7,093 nucleotides of DNA from DAOVGU01 sp030637775 [NCBI: bacterium] (lineage in GTDB: Bacteria; Ratteibacteria; UBA8468), in contig DAOWFY010000170.1 in NCBI GenBank assembly GCA_030637775.1, positions 1 to 7,093 of the forward strand. Direction: 5' to 3'. Positions 740 through 4,915 of this stretch are shown one piece after another (the stretch's first letter is position 1; every line of letters begins with the position of its first letter). A program made the translations under genes and the position numbers. The notes under the pieces were generated by a model, which made no database searches, was not told the DNA's origin, and saw only the letters and a program-made list of their open reading frames with translations.

Positions 740-808
740 AGGGGTCAGGTCTCAACATTTAATAACCTATCACATAAATATTTTGTTAAATATTGAGACC
801 TGACCCCT
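740..808. repeat. REP-like palindromic element, copy 1 (between HU and queC)
   Basis: Two arms of about 26 nt (740-765 and 783-808) face each other around a 17-nt AT-rich loop. The left arm starts AGGGGTCAGGTCTCAAC and the right arm ends GAGACCTGACCCCT; in RNA the only imperfections are one C-A mismatch and one G-U pair. The outer 20 nt of the left arm are identical to copy 2 at 6918-6971, so this is a dispersed family and not an ordinary local hairpin. Such GGGGTCAGG palindromes resemble REP/BIME elements moved by Y1 (RAYT, IS200-like) transposases, but no transposase is in the window. There is no T-run after it, so it is not a typical intrinsic terminator. Confidence 0.85.
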
Positions 809-813
809 ATGTT

Positions 814-1488
814 ATGAAAAAAGCAATCGTTTTACTTTCGGGGGGAATTGATTCTTCAACTACCCTTTACTTAGCCAGACACAAGGGCTACAAGACCTTG
901 TGTCTGATTTTTGACTACCATCAGAGGCACAAGAAGGAGATAGAGTCGGCTAAAGCCATTGCTAAAAGCACCAATAGCGACTATAAGATAATAAGGATTC
1001 TTCTGCCGGAGGGAGGAAGTTCTCTTCTAAATCCAGATATATCACTTGCTATCGGTAAGGAGAAGATCCCTTCCACCTATGTCCCCGCCAGGAACATCAT
1101 ATTTTTAGCCTACGCTGCCTCCTATGCTGAGGCCTGGGGAGCCCGTGTAATATTTATCGGGGTAAATCAAGTAGATTATAGTGGTTACCCTGATTGCCGC
1201 GAGAGCTTTATCCGTACTTTCAACCAGATGATTAAGGTAGGAACCAAATCCTGGACACAAAAGAGAAAAGATATGAAGGTAATTGCTCCTCTGATGAAGA
1301 TGACCAAGGGAGAGATAATTAAATTGGGAGTGAAATTAGAGGTTCCTTACCATCTTACCTGGTCCTGCTACGAAGGAAAGGGAAAGCCCTGTCTTAAATG
1401 CGATTCCTGCAAATTCCGTCTTAAAGGATTCCGGGAGGCGAGGGTAGAAGACCCTCTCCTAACCGATGGAAAAGGCAAAGGTCTCTGA
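814..1488 (+). CDS. queC: 7-cyano-7-deazaguanine (preQ0) synthase QueC
   Basis: QueC uses ATP and ammonia to convert 7-carboxy-7-deazaguanine to preQ0, the cytosolic precursor of tRNA queuosine. The 224-residue product starts MKKAIVLLSGGIDSSTT with the PP-loop ATP pyrophosphatase motif SGGIDSS (9-15). The C-terminal zinc motif is complete: C185, C193, C196 and C199 in SCYEGKGKPCLKCDSC. Length matches the family. ATG 814 is chosen because the PP-loop normally lies within the first ten residues; a TTG at 793 would place the start inside the palindrome. No SD lies directly upstream; the best one is beyond the hairpin at 729-736. The 3' end overlaps queE by 23 nt, suggesting translational coupling. 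No preQ1 riboswitch-like fold is visible upstream. Confidence 0.95.
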   Translation: MKKAIVLLSGGIDSSTTLYLARHKGYKTLCLIFDYHQRHKKEIESAKAIAKSTNSDYKIIRILLPEGGSSLLNPDISLAIGKEKIPSTYVPARNIIFLAYAASYAEAWGARVIFIGVNQVDYSGYPDCRESFIRTFNQMIKVGTKSWTQKRKDMKVIAPLMKMTKGEIIKLGVKLEVPYHLTWSCYEGKGKPCLKCDSCKFRLKGFREARVEDPLLTDGKGKGL

Positions 1489-2146
1489 ACTCTTCTCCTC
1501 CATCCAGGGAGAGGGGTTATACGTAGGCAGAAAGGAAATATTTATTCGCTTTTCTGGTTGTAACCTCAACTGTGTTTTCTGTGACGTTAATAATAAGAAG
1601 GGAGAATTTTATACTGTTGAGGAACTGGTGGAAGAGATTAAGAGAATTAACAGAGAGGCAAAATGGCTCACTTTAACCGGAGGAGAGCCTCTTCTCTGGT
1701 GCGATTTCCTAAAGGAATTTCTTCCTCTTCTAAAGAATGAAGAACTGAAGATAAATCTGGAAACCAATGGAACTATGCCCGAGAAATTCAGAAAAATAAA
1801 GGATTTGATAGATATTGTGGCCTTAGATTTTAAGTTACCCAGCTCAACTGCAGAGAAACCTTTCTGGAAAAAACACCAGCAATTCTTAAATCTGGCTAAA
1901 GAGAAGTCCTTCGTTAAGGTTGTCATCACCGCTAAAACAATTTCCGAGGATCTAAAAAAAGCGGTAAAAATAATTTCCGAGATTGATCAGGAAATTCCTC
2001 TTATCTTACAACCGGTTACACCTCATAGAAAATTTAGAGCCGTAGCTCCGATGAAGAAAGTTTTGAAATTTCAGGAGCAGGCCCTCAAATTCCTCACTGA
2101 TGTGAGGGTAATACCCCAGATACACAAATTCCTGAAGTTGAGGTAA
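1466..2146 (+). CDS. queE: 7-carboxy-7-deazaguanine synthase QueE (radical SAM)
   Basis: QueE is a radical S-adenosylmethionine enzyme that contracts 6-carboxy-5,6,7,8-tetrahydropterin to 7-carboxy-7-deazaguanine, the step before QueC. The 226-residue product has the family N-terminus SELFSSIQGEG (7-17), an RFSGCNLNCVFCD segment with a CxxxCxxC [4Fe-4S] cluster motif (C32, C36, C39), and the SAM-binding TGGEP (71-75). It ends with the usual RVIPQIHKFLKLR tail. The start at 1466 is supported because SIQGEG must be near the N-terminus and no earlier in-frame start fits. No strong SD precedes it; the 23-nt overlap with queC implies coupled translation. The partner enzyme QueD is not in the window. 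Confidence 0.95.
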   Translation: MEKAKVSELFSSIQGEGLYVGRKEIFIRFSGCNLNCVFCDVNNKKGEFYTVEELVEEIKRINREAKWLTLTGGEPLLWCDFLKEFLPLLKNEELKINLETNGTMPEKFRKIKDLIDIVALDFKLPSSTAEKPFWKKHQQFLNLAKEKSFVKVVITAKTISEDLKKAVKIISEIDQEIPLILQPVTPHRKFRAVAPMKKVLKFQEQALKFLTDVRVIPQIHKFLKLR

Positions 2147-2152
2147 AAGGAG
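2147..2152 (+). promoter_or_regulatory. Shine-Dalgarno site of queF
   Basis: AAGGAG directly after the queE stop codon lies 5 nt before ATG 2158. It fixes the queF start and shows independent ribosome loading within the operon. Confidence 0.75.
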
Positions 2153-2157
2153 CCAAA

Positions 2158-2553
2158 ATGAAATTGAGTAAAGAGTATGATCGGTTGCAGAAAAATATAA
2201 GAAAGGTAAAGAAACCTCCGATAGAGGTCTGGAGCAACAAATATCCGGATAAAAAATGCATCGTTACCATTGAAATTTCTGAGTTCACCTGTCTTTGCCC
2301 CAAGACCGCTCTTCCCGATTTCGCCACCATCATTATAAAATACATTCCCGATAAATACTGCGTGGAACTGAAGTCTTTCAAATATTACCTTCTCTCCTAC
2401 CGGAATGTAGGGATATTTCATGAGCATGCCATCAATAGGATTTTAGATGATTTTGTTCACGCCTGCCATCCACGCTGGACCAACATCATCGGGGAATTTA
2501 ACCCCCGCGGAGGAATCAAAACCACCGTAACTCGAGAGTATAAAAGAAAATAG
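2158..2553 (+). CDS. queF: NADPH-dependent preQ0 reductase QueF, short YkvM-type
   Basis: QueF reduces the nitrile of preQ0 to the amine preQ1 using NADPH; preQ1 is then inserted into tRNA by Tgt. The single-domain T-fold protein has 131 residues, shorter than Bacillus-type QueF (about 165) and far shorter than the two-domain E. coli form. The active-site segment EFTCLCPKTALPDFATI (42-58) has the conserved catalytic Cys (C47) and Asp (D54). The QueF signature ELKSFKYY (70-77) and the substrate-binding FHE (87-89) follow. The fold ends FNPRGGIKTTV near the C-terminus as expected. It is 11 nt after queE and completes the preQ0-to-preQ1 part of the pathway. T-fold relatives such as FolE and QueD are excluded by the Cys and ELKS motifs. 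Confidence 0.95.
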   Translation: MKLSKEYDRLQKNIRKVKKPPIEVWSNKYPDKKCIVTIEISEFTCLCPKTALPDFATIIIKYIPDKYCVELKSFKYYLLSYRNVGIFHEHAINRILDDFVHACHPRWTNIIGEFNPRGGIKTTVTREYKRK

Positions 2554-2693: not shown

Positions 2694-3320
2694 ATGAAAG
2701 CAGAAAAGAAGGCAAATATTCGGTTTGCATTCAACGTGAAGAAGTTTGTTAATGCTATGGCTTTATTCGCCCAAGAAGTAAATAAATTAGATAAACTGAA
2801 AGCTGCAAAACTTCTTTATTTTGCGGATAAACATCATTTGGTAAGATACGGACGGCCAATTTTTGGTGATCGATATCACAGTCTTGATTACGGACCAGTT
2901 CCTTCTCTTTGTTTAGATATTATGAATGAAGTTTTACAACCTTTAGATGAAATTTCAATGCGAACTCCGTACAAAAATATATTTGAGCGAAAACTTAAAG
3001 TATCTAAACCTAAAGACCACCCTTATCCTTGTTTCAAGAAAGTAGAAGATCCTGACATGGAAGTATTTTCTCAATCAGAAATTGAATCTTTAAAAGCAAC
3101 AATTGCCAAATATGGCAAGAAAACCGGCGGTAAACTCATTGACTTATGCCATGAGGAAGCAACATGGTTAAAAACGAGAGGAAGTGAAAATCCAGACCCA
3201 GAAATTGACTACCGGCTATTTTTTAAAAATAGTCCTGAAGCAGAGCCTGGTGTTTTAGAATTAATGGAAGCTTCTCAAGAAGATAGAGATTTTATTAAGC
3301 ATCTTCAGAATGAAACTTGA
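2694..3320 (+). CDS. Panacea-domain (DUF4065, SocA-like) protein, probable antitoxin
   Basis: The 208-residue product carries a Panacea domain, seen as FNVKKFVNAMALFAQ then LKAAKLLYFADKHHLVRYGRPIFGDRYHSLDYGPVP (about 13-70), the region where the family has KLxKLLYFADxxHL...YGRPIxGDxYxxxxxGPVP. The C-terminal part (about 120-208) is charged and helical and probably holds the toxin-specific surface. In characterised systems Panacea proteins neutralise unrelated toxin types (PanA antitoxins), and Caulobacter SocA is a proteolytic adaptor antitoxin. The overlap of its last 11 nt with the next small gene is the usual antitoxin-first layout. The gene is AT-richer than its neighbours, consistent with horizontal acquisition. 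The family is clear; the antitoxin role is inferred from context. Confidence 0.85.
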   Translation: MKAEKKANIRFAFNVKKFVNAMALFAQEVNKLDKLKAAKLLYFADKHHLVRYGRPIFGDRYHSLDYGPVPSLCLDIMNEVLQPLDEISMRTPYKNIFERKLKVSKPKDHPYPCFKKVEDPDMEVFSQSEIESLKATIAKYGKKTGGKLIDLCHEEATWLKTRGSENPDPEIDYRLFFKNSPEAEPGVLELMEASQEDRDFIKHLQNET

Positions 3321-3735
3321 TAGCTCCTTTGACCAGATATTTCAACAAGGTTCTGTCCTGAAGTATTCTAAATTTCTACTATCTGATGGAAGACGCAAGC
3401 CCAAAATTTTTGTAATACTTAATAAAAATCCAACCCACAATTTAATGCGCTGTGTGCTAACTACCTCCCAATTCAATTTTTATAATAAGTCTCCACAATG
3501 GAAAAAAGATCAGTTCGTTTTAATTCCAGCTGGATCTGTTTCTTTTCTTCCTGTAAAAACATTTATAAACTGTGAGGTTACATATACATTACCCAAATCG
3601 AAATTGGTAGAGGCTTATCGAAAACAGAAATTGGAGAGTTTTGGTATTTTGCCTAAAAAGTTTCTCGATAAAGTTATCGATATTATAAGAAGTTCAATCC
3701 TTATCGAAACAGAGGTTAAGAAAGCTATTCTGTAA
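3310..3735 (+). CDS. Small PemK/MazF-like protein, probable toxin paired with Panacea
   Basis: The 141-residue protein has the outline of the PemK/MazF SH3-like barrel: an early GSVLKY strand (14-19), then SDGRRKPKIFVILNK (25-39) where MazF has a basic loop and the RPVLVV-type strand, then MRCVLTTSQ (46-54) equivalent to the VxxxPxTS strand. A terminal helix, LPKKFLDKVIDIIRS, matches the family ending. MazF/PemK toxins are ribonucleases that cut mRNA, but catalytic residues cannot be assigned confidently by eye, so RNase activity is inference. ATG 3310 overlaps the upstream stop by 11 nt, implying coupling. There is no membrane segment. If the fold assignment is wrong it remains the most likely partner of the Panacea protein. 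Confidence 0.65.
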   Translation: MKLDSSFDQIFQQGSVLKYSKFLLSDGRRKPKIFVILNKNPTHNLMRCVLTTSQFNFYNKSPQWKKDQFVLIPAGSVSFLPVKTFINCEVTYTLPKSKLVEAYRKQKLESFGILPKKFLDKVIDIIRSSILIETEVKKAIL

Positions 3736-3797: not shown

Positions 3798-4766
3798 CTA
3801 AACTATTATCTTTTCCACAACAAATACGCGGGTAGGGAAGCCTACCAGTTTGGAAACAGTGAGATTTCCATCGCCAGATAGAACTCTGGTTTTTGCCCTT
3901 TCTACGGGGAGAGAATGAATTCCAGCCTGAAAATGCATATGGGATAAAATTGTCGTTCCCGGGGGTCCATTATAGACCACCATATATTCTGGTGCGTTCA
4001 AAACAAATTCTACCATTATCCGAATCTCATTTTTATCAATGAACTGATAAGTATGTTTTTCATTCACGATAACAATGTGATGGTCATAGTAAGGGTAGGG
4101 GTTAGCCGAGATAATATAGCCATTCCAGGGGTAATCTTCCCTTCCTTTTTCGTAAGAGCAATAGGGGCATTCCTCCTCTCCCTTCTTTCTTTTCTCCACT
4201 AACGAAAAGCTCACAATCGATTTTCTTCTTCCATTATATTGAACCTCAATCAAACCATCCTCATACGATTTAGTTTCTATTCCCTTGAGACATTCCTCTC
4301 GCACAAATCCATTCTTAATCCCCTTTTTCCAGAGGGTATCGACCTTCTCGGCTAAAAAAGGAAATTTCAGGCCTTGCCTGCCGGAAGGCAGATTAAAATT
4401 CTCACTTTTGTCCTTTATTTTTTTGTCTTTTAGATACTCATCGACAAATTTGAGGTCTTCTTCAGAACTGCTCACATAATTAAGGGCTTCTCTCACATTT
4501 TTATCATCAGAAAATTCAAAGACATCTTTATCCACCGTTATCACAAGACCGGCCATTTCTGAAGAACCGGGCTTGATTGTCTTGTCCTTATCATGGAAGT
4601 GGTCAATATAATTTTTCGGAAGTCTCGTCCACCGGGGAAAAAGAAAGGCACGTAGGCGGTGATTCCGACAGGCGACAATGACATTAATGATCTTTGTTTT
4701 CTCATTACTCAGAAGAAGATTAACCAAATTTCCTACCGTCTCTACAAATCCCATTTTCTTTTCCAT
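3798..4766 (-). CDS. GalT/HIT-superfamily protein related to DUF4922 and GDP-L-galactose phosphorylase, apparently circularly permuted
   Basis: The 322-residue product carries a GalT-type active site near its C-terminus: HMHFQ (H276, H278, Q280) after VVYNGPPGTTILS, and a CPYC pair (C200, C203) with H238, matching the zinc and catalytic layout of hexose-1-phosphate uridylyltransferases (H278 the likely nucleotidylated residue). IEVQYNGRRKSIVSF, NPYPYYDHHIVIVNEKHT and HFQAG resemble DUF4922 proteins and plant VTC2. Residues 6-115 (FVETVGNLVNLLL, INVIVACRNHRLRAFLFPR, SSEMAGLVITVDKDVFE) resemble the part that normally follows HxHxQ, so the order looks swapped. A short repeat encodes LPSGRQG (126-132) in the linker. 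It probably transfers or phosphorolyses a nucleotide-sugar or dinucleotide; substrate unknown. No SD precedes ATG 4764-4766; M5 is an alternative start. Confidence 0.75.
   Translation of the reverse strand: MEKKMGFVETVGNLVNLLLSNEKTKIINVIVACRNHRLRAFLFPRWTRLPKNYIDHFHDKDKTIKPGSSEMAGLVITVDKDVFEFSDDKNVREALNYVSSSEEDLKFVDEYLKDKKIKDKSENFNLPSGRQGLKFPFLAEKVDTLWKKGIKNGFVREECLKGIETKSYEDGLIEVQYNGRRKSIVSFSLVEKRKKGEEECPYCSYEKGREDYPWNGYIISANPYPYYDHHIVIVNEKHTYQFIDKNEIRIMVEFVLNAPEYMVVYNGPPGTTILSHMHFQAGIHSLPVERAKTRVLSGDGNLTVSKLVGFPTRVFVVEKIIV
4375..4390. repeat. Short GC-rich palindromic repeat in the linker of the GalT-like gene
   Basis: TGCCTGCCGGAAGGCA is a near-palindrome (two mismatched positions) centred on CCGG. 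On the coding strand its neighbourhood gives the peptide LPSGRQG, foreign in composition to the Lys/Glu-rich linker around it. I recall similar LPAGRQG-type insertions scattered through genomes of uncultured bacteria, which would make this a dispersed element tolerated in frame; that is memory, not tested here. Confidence 0.5.
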
Positions 4767-4775
4767 TTTGACACT

Positions 4776-4914
4776 GAGGCGAGGAAGTTCCCTGAAGCGT
4801 GCCTTGTTGGCGACAAGCGGGCATGGTGTCCGAAGGACGAGCGAGGAGCAACGAGAGTGAAGATTTCCTCGCTGGGGAAATCAAACGTGCCGCTGAAGGA
4901 AACTTCCGAGCCTC
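4776..4914. mobile_element. MITE-like 139-bp inverted-repeat element between priA and the GalT-like gene
   Basis: The two ends (4776-4799 and 4891-4914) are inverted copies matching at 19 of 24 positions without gaps, sharing GAGGC, GGAAGTT, CCT and AGCG blocks. Inside are smaller hairpins: CTTGT/ACAAG (4803-4817), GTCC/GGAC (4828-4838), and GATTTCC/GGAAATC (4862-4882). It holds no plausible gene. It fills nearly the whole gap, starting 1 nt after the priA stop and ending 9 nt before the GalT-like start. The structure suits a non-autonomous transposable element or a composite of nested small repeats. No flanking target duplication is obvious and no transposase is present. None of the hairpins is followed by a T-run, so it is not a clear terminator. 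Confidence 0.55.
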
Positions 4915-4915
4915 T

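What the first reader, a model, noticed from the sequence alone, without database searches (positions are those of the whole stretch)
3798..4766. Circularly permuted DUF4922 / GDP-L-galactose phosphorylase-like enzyme
In VTC2-type phosphorylases, as I recall the sequence, the order is: N-terminal strand region, HxHxQ (HLHFQAY), a YPVRxLLFE strand, an L-S-x-x-V-S helix, FNVLISDCGxxIFLxPQ, then ISGHMVLKRKEDYE and the final helices. Here the second half comes first: FVETVGNLVNLLL, INVIVACRNHRLRAFLFPR, SSEMAGLVITVDKDVFE (6-115). A linker follows, then EVQYNGRRKSIVSF, CPYC, NPYPYYDHHIVIVNEKH, HMHFQAG, and GFPTRVFVVEK at the very end. Joining the C-terminus (GFPTRVFVVEK) back to residue 6 restores the family order. 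This is what a tandem duplication followed by loss of the outer halves would give. The zinc and catalytic residues (C200, C203, H238, H276, H278, Q280) all look intact, so the permuted protein may be active.
Basis: partly seen in the sequence, partly recalled or inferred. Interest (0 to 1): 0.8.

Follow-up and report, generated by a model that had tools for sequence, protein, structure and literature searches.

The report
Naturally circularly permuted HIT-type sugar-nucleotide enzyme
In two little-known groups of uncultured bacteria, an enzyme of the galactose/Ap4A phosphorylase kind has its front and back halves swapped in the gene, yet its catalytic residues are kept and the gene is under strong selection, so it probably works and shows that this fold tolerates being re-cut.

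Summary
The 322-aa gene at 3798-4766(-) encodes a DUF4922 (PF16269) protein whose C-terminal half comes first. Residues 1-118 align only to the C-terminal half of ordinary DUF4922 proteins (hhalign E 1.3e-8; 0 of 200 column shuffles as good). Residues 134-322 align only to the N-terminal half (E 1.5e-27), and a rotation scan peaks after residue 118. Half-profiles built only from ordinary proteins find the halves swapped in 7 of 7 permuted loci and normal in 75 of 75 others, 70 of these being training rows. It is no assembly error: the order recurs in 4 of 4 held genomes of the window's family and 3 of 7 of a second phylum. dN/dS is 0.05-0.10 in both halves. Predicted models share 25 secondary-structure elements, rotated. 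The ordinary model matches yeast Ap4A phosphorylase end to end (Z 23.1), the permuted one only its N-terminal part (Z 9.5). Catalytic residues are invariant, so nucleotidyl-histidine phosphorylase/transferase chemistry is likely. Substrate and evolutionary route are unknown; identity with VTC2 is not shown.

The parts
3798..4766 (-). Whole gene, 322 aa plus stop: permuted DUF4922/Apa2-like HIT-superfamily nucleotidyltransferase or phosphorylase
   Evidence: ORF; PF16269 E 7.6e-16; 7-member family alignment A2; dN/dS about 0.1
4422..4751 (-). 'B' half, residues 6-115: equivalent to the C-terminal half of ordinary DUF4922 proteins, here N-terminal
   Evidence: hhalign E 1.3e-8 to canonical columns 245-339 of 348; E 5.7e-10 to the canonical C half, no match to the N half; canonical C-half HMM E 5.8e-8 at 4437-4709
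4359..4421 (-). Linker, residues 116-136, joining the old C-terminus to the old N-terminus; low confidence in the model and fast-diverging
   Evidence: pLDDT blocks 67 and 75, residues 128-132 below 50; 14 alignable linker codons, pN 0.308 against 0.07-0.12 in the halves for window against L030; faster than both halves in 5 of 6 comparisons
4375..4391 (.). Copy of a dispersed palindromic repeat lying in frame in the linker (adds LPSGRQG)
   Evidence: 28 hits in the genome with up to 1 mismatch, both strands counted, 0 for the reversed control pattern; the insertion is absent from the other 6 members
3810..4358 (-). 'A' half, residues 137-319: N-terminal catalytic HIT half of ordinary DUF4922, here C-terminal
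   Evidence: hhalign E 1.5e-27 to canonical columns 30-225; canonical N-half HMM E 8.5e-24; VIA-align to Apa2 1-211, Z 9.5
4158..4169 (-). CPYC, residues 200-203, presumed zinc ligands C200 and C203
   Evidence: Invariant in 7 of 7 permuted; equivalent C79/C82 invariant in 34 of 34 canonical rows aligned; zinc role recalled from GalT
3921..3941 (-). HMHFQAG, residues 276-282: HxHxQ motif, presumed zinc ligand H276, nucleophile H278 and Q280
   Evidence: Invariant in 7 of 7 and as H160/H162/Q164 in 34 of 34 canonical rows aligned; roles recalled from GalT-branch enzymes

Best explanation
The gene encodes a natural circular permutant of the two-half DUF4922/Ap4A-phosphorylase-like enzymes of the HIT superfamily. 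The cut lies between the last strand of the catalytic half (FVVEK) and the helix that opens the second half (FVETVGNLVNLLL). A variable linker of about 15-25 residues joins the old C-terminal helix to the old N-terminal helix, so the chain reads second half, linker, catalytic half and should fold to the same globule. Shown: swapped order, family-wide conservation, purifying selection and predicted fold. Inferred from conserved motifs: C200, C203, H238 and H276 bind zinc, H278 attacks the alpha-phosphate of a nucleotide substrate to give a nucleotidyl-histidine intermediate, and phosphate or a sugar-1-phosphate takes up the nucleotide. That is phosphorylase or transferase chemistry rather than hydrolysis. 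A galactokinase-like gene lies next to one member (Ratteibacteria) and glycosyltransferase and O-antigen-ligase genes lie near two others, so a nucleotide-sugar substrate is the best guess, and a guess only.
For: Profile tests: B half to canonical C half E 1.3e-8, 0 of 200 column shuffles as good, reversed control 13.3 against 57.6. Cross controls: B half to canonical N half and A half to canonical C half give no match (E 0.16 and 0.37). Rotation scan in steps of six columns: maximum 236.3 at the cut after residue 118 against 188.4 unrotated. A permuted-only HMM finds A in 70 of 70 canonical proteins and a separate B match (i-E up to 0.01) in 51 of 70, C-terminal of A in 51 of 51. Canonical-only half HMMs: 7 of 7 permuted loci swapped; 75 of 75 others normal, of which 70 are the training rows. 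A permuted-profile search of 386 genomes found one ORF matched by both halves in normal order (G162). AF2: window model pLDDT 89.5, pTM 0.91; canonical model 95.0, 0.92; 9 + 16 elements in rotated order. Fold comparison. Selection. Catalytic residues invariant. Context.
Against: No protein has been made or assayed. The B-half match is remote: 19% identity over 95 columns in the hhalign output. Residues invariant in 34 of 34 canonical rows have changed in the B half (E233 to T24, R258 to L49, S273 to K65), so the activity may have shifted. The AF2 alignment for the window contained unpaired canonical halves, so the model is not wholly independent of the family assignment. Foldseek gives the window model no PDB match at E up to 0.001 (best: Apa2, E 0.07), while the ordinary model reaches 1.5e-11; a permutant would do this, but so would a poor model. 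Gene neighbours differ between lineages, which weakens the substrate inference: in the window itself there are only HU-, queC/E/F- and SocA-like genes, one unassigned ORF and priA.
Confidence: 0.85

Rival explanations
1. Assembly or binning artefact: a repeat joined two pieces of a normal gene in the wrong order.
For: A dispersed palindrome lies exactly in the linker and the genome is a fragmented draft of 177 contigs.
Against: The same order is seen in six further loci from other genomes, in two phyla; none of these six has the insertion in the linker. The ORF is under purifying selection.
Confidence: 0.01
2. Residues 1-115 are an unrelated N-terminal domain and the protein is a stand-alone catalytic half; the resemblance is chance.
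For: Pfam and NCBIfam report nothing on 1-115 at E up to 1; identity to canonical C halves is low; Foldseek's best hit is weak and VIA-align matches only 133-322 to Apa2.
Against: Column-shuffle, reversed and cross-half controls all fail to reproduce the match. The canonical-only C-half HMM hits 7 of 7 permuted proteins at E 3.5e-9 to 1.4e-5. The secondary-structure elements match one for one.
Confidence: 0.03
3. The fold is right, but the enzyme is a hydrolase or a non-catalytic, ligand-binding protein rather than a phosphorylase/transferase.
For: Changed residues in the B half at positions invariant in the canonical rows aligned; no assay of a bacterial DUF4922 protein was seen (search listing only).
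Against: HxHxQ (not HxHxH), CxxC and H238 are invariant in 7 of 7, and both halves show dN/dS of 0.05-0.10.
Confidence: 0.25
4. The permuted order is ancestral and the ordinary order derived.
For: In the catalytic-half tree the permuted clade lies beside the canonical clade, not inside it; the tree root is arbitrary.
Against: The ordinary-order model matches Apa2, DUF4931, ADP-glucose phosphorylase and GalT structures in sequence order, and 75 of 75 sampled relatives have the ordinary order.
Confidence: 0.05

Closest known systems
DUF4922 proteins (PF16269) of Bacteroidota and others
   Same: Sequence family by Pfam cut-off; both halves align; same catalytic residues; similar length, mostly about 310 aa
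   Different: Halves in the opposite order; several canonical-invariant residues changed in the second half; no GT2-DUF4922-SpoIID cassette among the ORFs listed for the window, L003-L005 and L031-L033, although L032 and L033 have a GT2 gene nearby
Yeast Ap4A phosphorylase Apa2 (4i5t/4i5v/4i5w)
   Same: Closest solved fold for both models; the catalytic half aligns to residues 1-211, Z 9.5
   Different: Apa2 runs in ordinary order; residues 1-115 of the window protein are not matched in sequence order
GalT type 2 (TIGR01239/PRK05270 families)
   Same: HIT stretch PYxYYxxH ... ILSHxHxQ resembles the window's; NCBIfam match to 218-294, E 3.2e-12, far below the cut-off
   Different: The second half gives no match (B half against five GalT2 proteins E 0.34); ordinary order; about 490 aa
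VTC2/GGP (GDP-L-galactose phosphorylase)
   Same: Hydrophobic HxHxQ motif of the GalT branch, as described in passages of PMC6878703
Natural circular permutants in general (saposin/swaposin, DNA methyltransferases)
   Same: Same kind of event; both models of origin described in passages of PMC3320104
   Different: None of my searches turned up a permuted HIT-transferase in titles or abstract starts

Membership tests
DUF4922 (PF16269) | Pfam gathering score over the catalytic domain | tested here: met
   58.8 bits against cut-off 23.6, profile positions 19-145 of 146
DUF4922 (PF16269) | CxxC, distal His and HxHxQ catalytic/zinc residues | tested here: met
   Invariant in 7 of 7 permuted rows and in 34 of 34 canonical rows aligned, out of 70 held
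DUF4922 (PF16269) | Ordinary domain order: catalytic half then second half | tested here: not met
   Swapped in 7 of 7; ordinary in 75 of 75 others. It is therefore filed as a permuted variant, not an ordinary member
Apa2-like two-half fold | Both halves present in the model | tested here: met
   9 + 16 secondary-structure elements match the canonical model in rotated order; the canonical model matches Apa2 end to end, Z 23.1, rmsd 3.0, 267 aligned
Apa2-like two-half fold | Second half superposes on the Apa2 C-terminal part in space | not testable with these tools
   No coordinates lay in the Python box, and the fold searches aligned only 133-322 of the window model to Apa2
GalT type 2 | NCBIfam equivalog cut-off | tested here: not met
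   44.4 bits against 650.15 for TIGR01239
VTC2/GGP | GDP-hexose phosphorylase activity and GGP-specific sequence | not tested
   No VTC2 sequence was compared; activity cannot be tested here
HIT-superfamily phosphorylase/transferase | Nucleotidyl-His intermediate and phosphorolysis or transfer | not testable with these tools
   Needs enzymology

The most novel reading that the evidence does not exclude
This is the first known natural circular permutant of the two-half HIT transferases (GalT/Ap4A phosphorylase/GGP kind): a single ancient event, fixed in two candidate phyla as the only full copy of the family found in those draft genomes, giving an active enzyme with the catalytic half at the C-terminus and a shifted substrate.
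Probability: 0.6. Interest if true: 0.65.

Novelty: new variant of a known kind. Interest (0 to 1): 0.57.

Why it matters
Natural circular permutants of metabolic enzymes are uncommon (recalled, not counted here) and are good tests of how folds tolerate re-wiring. Here seven permuted proteins and many ordinary relatives can be compared directly. The case also shows that domain annotation which ignores order misses such proteins: Pfam reports only the catalytic domain. The family gives a ready pair for asking whether permutation changed specificity in an enzyme class (DUF4922) for which the search returned only two papers, both on plant GGP by title and abstract start.

Tried and rejected
VTC2 as the identity: neither Pfam nor NCBIfam listed a GGP family at E up to 1, and I compared no VTC2 sequence. 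Direct PDB sequence search with the four-member permuted profile: only two weak hits, to a ribosomal protein and a helicase (E 0.27 and 0.66). Viral-contig scan: 30 pattern matches, none a relative. Phage and plasmid tblastn: 12 records each, none covering 80% of the query; of the 10 plasmid rows listed, 8 bear a named feature, ordinary DUF4922 (3) or galT (5). Pseudo-repeat between the two halves by sequence: no match (canonical C half against N half E 0.11), so the idea that the permutation simply swaps two HIT repeats rests on recalled structure knowledge only; VIA-align rows to GalT (6k5z Z 4.6, 1hxq Z 4.3) are too weak to use. Tandem or partial second copies: no second hit of any of four half-profiles in 83 loci. 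A first mixed alignment (A3) put the canonical C halves in the wrong columns; I trimmed them (one search tested settings offline; 24 of 24 then placed correctly with the automatic setting) and used A5 for the fold. In the fold comparison of the window model, the absence of a match for 1-115 is expected for a sequence-order aligner and is not evidence of a new fold.

Rows dropped: of 80 loci, 6 were permuted and 74 others; 70 of the 74 gave ORFs of 296-345 aa and were used in the canonical alignment. Four (L071, L095, L097, L103) were left out of it because the ORF was extended, fused or mis-framed, but their loci were included. The canonical model used 34 of the 70; the window model used halves of 24 of the 70. 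The tree used 42 rows: 7 permuted, 28 of 70 canonical, 2 plasmid DUF4922 and 5 GalT2; 8 of its 39 inner branches are starred.

Full report
What is there. The window is contig 34 (7093 bases) of a 1.4-Mb draft genome of 177 contigs. The gene at 3798-4766(-) is an open frame of 322 aa. Its neighbours are HU-like, queC, queE-like and queF genes on the plus strand, a SocA-like ORF with an overlapping 141-aa ORF, and priA upstream on the same strand as the gene. Pfam finds DUF4922 (PF16269) at residues 160-282, E 7.6e-16, and nothing on 1-115.

Is the order real? The four held genomes of the window's taxonomic family have the gene at full length (90, 83 and 67% identity to the window copy). A scan of genome contigs gave 358 relatives, of which the best 80 were kept. 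By record title the six are two 'bacterium' MAGs from one project, Candidatus Ratteibacteria, Candidatus Calescamantes, Caldisericota, and one further 'bacterium'. By whole-genome search the gene is in 4 of 35 genomes of the window's phylum, all four in one family, and in 3 of 7 genomes of a second phylum. A wider search of 386 genomes matched in 16, and only the 4 family members covered the whole profile. The order is therefore not an assembly error.

Is it a circular permutation? I split the seven permuted proteins into B (residues 1-118) and A (134-322) and compared them with a profile of 70 ordinary DUF4922 proteins. B aligns to canonical columns 245-339 of 348, E 1.3e-8, score 57.6; A aligns to columns 30-225, E 1.5e-27. 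A followed by B aligns over 291 columns with score 233.0, against 188.4 in native order. Column-shuffled B scored at most 29.0 in 200 trials, reversed B scored 13.3, and scanning rotations in steps of six columns gave the maximum (236.3) at a cut after residue 118. Cross-half controls gave no match: B against canonical N half E 0.16; A against canonical C half E 0.37; canonical C against N half E 0.11. In the reverse direction, an HMM from the seven permuted proteins matched A in 70 of 70 canonical proteins and a separate B stretch (i-E up to 0.01) in 51 of 70, C-terminal of A in 51 of 51. HMMs from canonical halves only, run on six-frame translations of 83 loci, found both halves in 82: swapped order in 7 of 7 permuted loci (C-half E 3.5e-9 to 1.4e-5), ordinary order in 75 of 75 others, always in one ORF. 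Of the 75, 70 are the training proteins and 5 are not. The remaining locus, L008, holds only a fragment. These E-values are for one comparison or for small databases and are rough.

Structure. AlphaFold2 gave pLDDT 89.5, pTM 0.91 for the window protein (55 rows: 7 permuted, 24 canonical N halves, 24 trimmed canonical C halves, unpaired) and 95.0, 0.92 for an ordinary relative, L082 from a Phycisphaerae MAG (34 rows). The ordinary model runs through 16 elements (H13-27 to E202-207) and then 9 (H210-227 to H310-324). The window model runs through 9 of the same types (H7-19 to H103-114), then a low-confidence linker, then 16 of the same types (H138-151 to E315-320). VIA-align puts the ordinary model on yeast Apa2 4i5t_B over 10-314 to 3-316 (Z 23.1, rmsd 3.0, 267 aligned). 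The window model matches the same chain only over 133-322 to 1-211 (Z 9.5, rmsd 3.5, 174 aligned), as expected of a permutant under a sequence-order aligner. Plain Foldseek gives E 1.5e-11 for the ordinary model but nothing at E up to 0.001 for the window model, whose best hit is Apa2 at 0.07. The window alignment contained canonical segments, so the model is supporting and not independent proof.

Does it work? dN/dS is 0.098 for window against L029, 0.084 for window against L030 and 0.111 for L033 against L034. Within the halves of these pairs it is 0.055-0.098. The more distant pairs are saturated or nearly so at silent sites. The 14 alignable linker codons diverge faster than both halves in 5 of 6 comparisons. 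C200, C203, H238, H276, H278 and Q280 are invariant in 7 of 7, and the equivalent C79, C82, H121, H160, H162 and Q164 (matched) in 34 of 34 canonical rows. From GalT enzymology (recalled), these are zinc ligands, nucleophile and its helper. Passages of PMC6878703 say that a hydrophobic HxHxQ motif marks the GalT branch of the HIT superfamily, and passages of PMC11066809 say that lack of one of the conserved histidines favours reaction with phosphate over hydrolysis in GGP. In the B half N28, R45, P50, P66 and G73 keep canonical-invariant residues (N237, R254, P259, P274, G281), but T24, L49 and K65 replace E233, R258 and S273, so the substrate may differ.

Substrate clues. In the Ratteibacteria contig the gene is followed by a galactokinase-like GHMP kinase, cut by the contig end and below the NCBIfam cut-offs (GHMP_kinases_N E 1.9e-17, galactose-binding signature E 6.7e-10). 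It is preceded by an HAD-like ORF, a phosphofructokinase and a 6-phosphogluconate dehydrogenase. In the two contigs read from the second phylum (L032, L033) it lies after a GT2 glycosyltransferase and a folD gene (scanned in L033; read from the translation in L032) and before an O-antigen-ligase/TPR protein; in L033 a 179-aa ORF without a Pfam match intervenes. Among ordinary DUF4922 loci, the upstream gene was a GT2 protein in 4 of 4 scanned and the downstream gene a SpoIID protein in 1 of 1 scanned. Fusions to one or both domains occur in 3 ORFs scanned; in a Paraprevotella MAG GT2, DUF4922 and SpoIID form one 1294-aa ORF. This context is not universal: on a Parabacteroides record the downstream gene is sppA, and on a Persicobacter plasmid a divergent DUF4922 gene lies near a beta-galactosidase-like gene and an aminoglycoside-phosphotransferase-family kinase. 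Nucleotide-sugar or sugar-1-phosphate metabolism fits most of these, but no specific substrate does.

Origin. On a tree of the catalytic half (42 rows) the seven permuted proteins form one group (100/97 against the GalT2 rows; 92/95 at the drawn fork) beside, not within, the ordinary DUF4922 clade; the root is arbitrary and branches are long. This is consistent with one event. [quoted passage not shown]

Literature. Searches for circular permutation with histidine triad, GalT, galactose-1-phosphate uridylyltransferase, phosphorylase and related terms, and for DUF4922, returned no paper that I recognised from title and abstract start as describing such a permutant. Only listed rows were seen, and the library lacks most subscription papers.

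Noticed in passing
window 4767-4915: The whole spacer between the gene and priA belongs to a dispersed repeat family: 31 places in the genome including itself, 79-97% identity for the others. It folds strongly as RNA (-60.9 kcal/mol, z -3.9). Looks like a MITE/REP-type element.
   Followed up: partly
window 4375-4391: Short palindrome TGCCTGCCGGNAGGCAG, 28 hits in the genome (both strands counted, up to 1 mismatch), lying in frame inside a coding linker.
   Followed up: partly
L008 229-330 (G003 contig 64): A 34-aa fragment matching the last residues of the permuted protein (62% identity); no other part of the gene was found in this 1830-base locus. Possibly the remnant of a second copy.
   Followed up: partly
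L095 4498-8382; L103 6001-8229; L120 2315-4780: Fusions of ordinary DUF4922 with GT2 glycosyltransferase and/or SpoIID domains; in L095 all three form one 1294-aa ORF. This links DUF4922 to glycan work.
   Followed up: partly
window 2694-3735: SocA-like ORF (NCBIfam type VI antitoxin model, 31.7 bits, below cut-off 190) overlapping a 141-aa ORF without an NCBIfam match at E up to 1e-5; possibly a toxin-antitoxin-like pair.
   Followed up: no
window 793-2553: queC, queE-like and queF genes in a row: part of a preQ1/queuosine pathway cluster.
   Followed up: no
L118 3995-4975 (Persicobacter plasmid): Very divergent protein annotated DUF4922, ordinary order by its translation, grouping with GalT2 on a long branch of the tree; near a beta-galactosidase-like gene and an aminoglycoside-phosphotransferase-family kinase.
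   Followed up: partly
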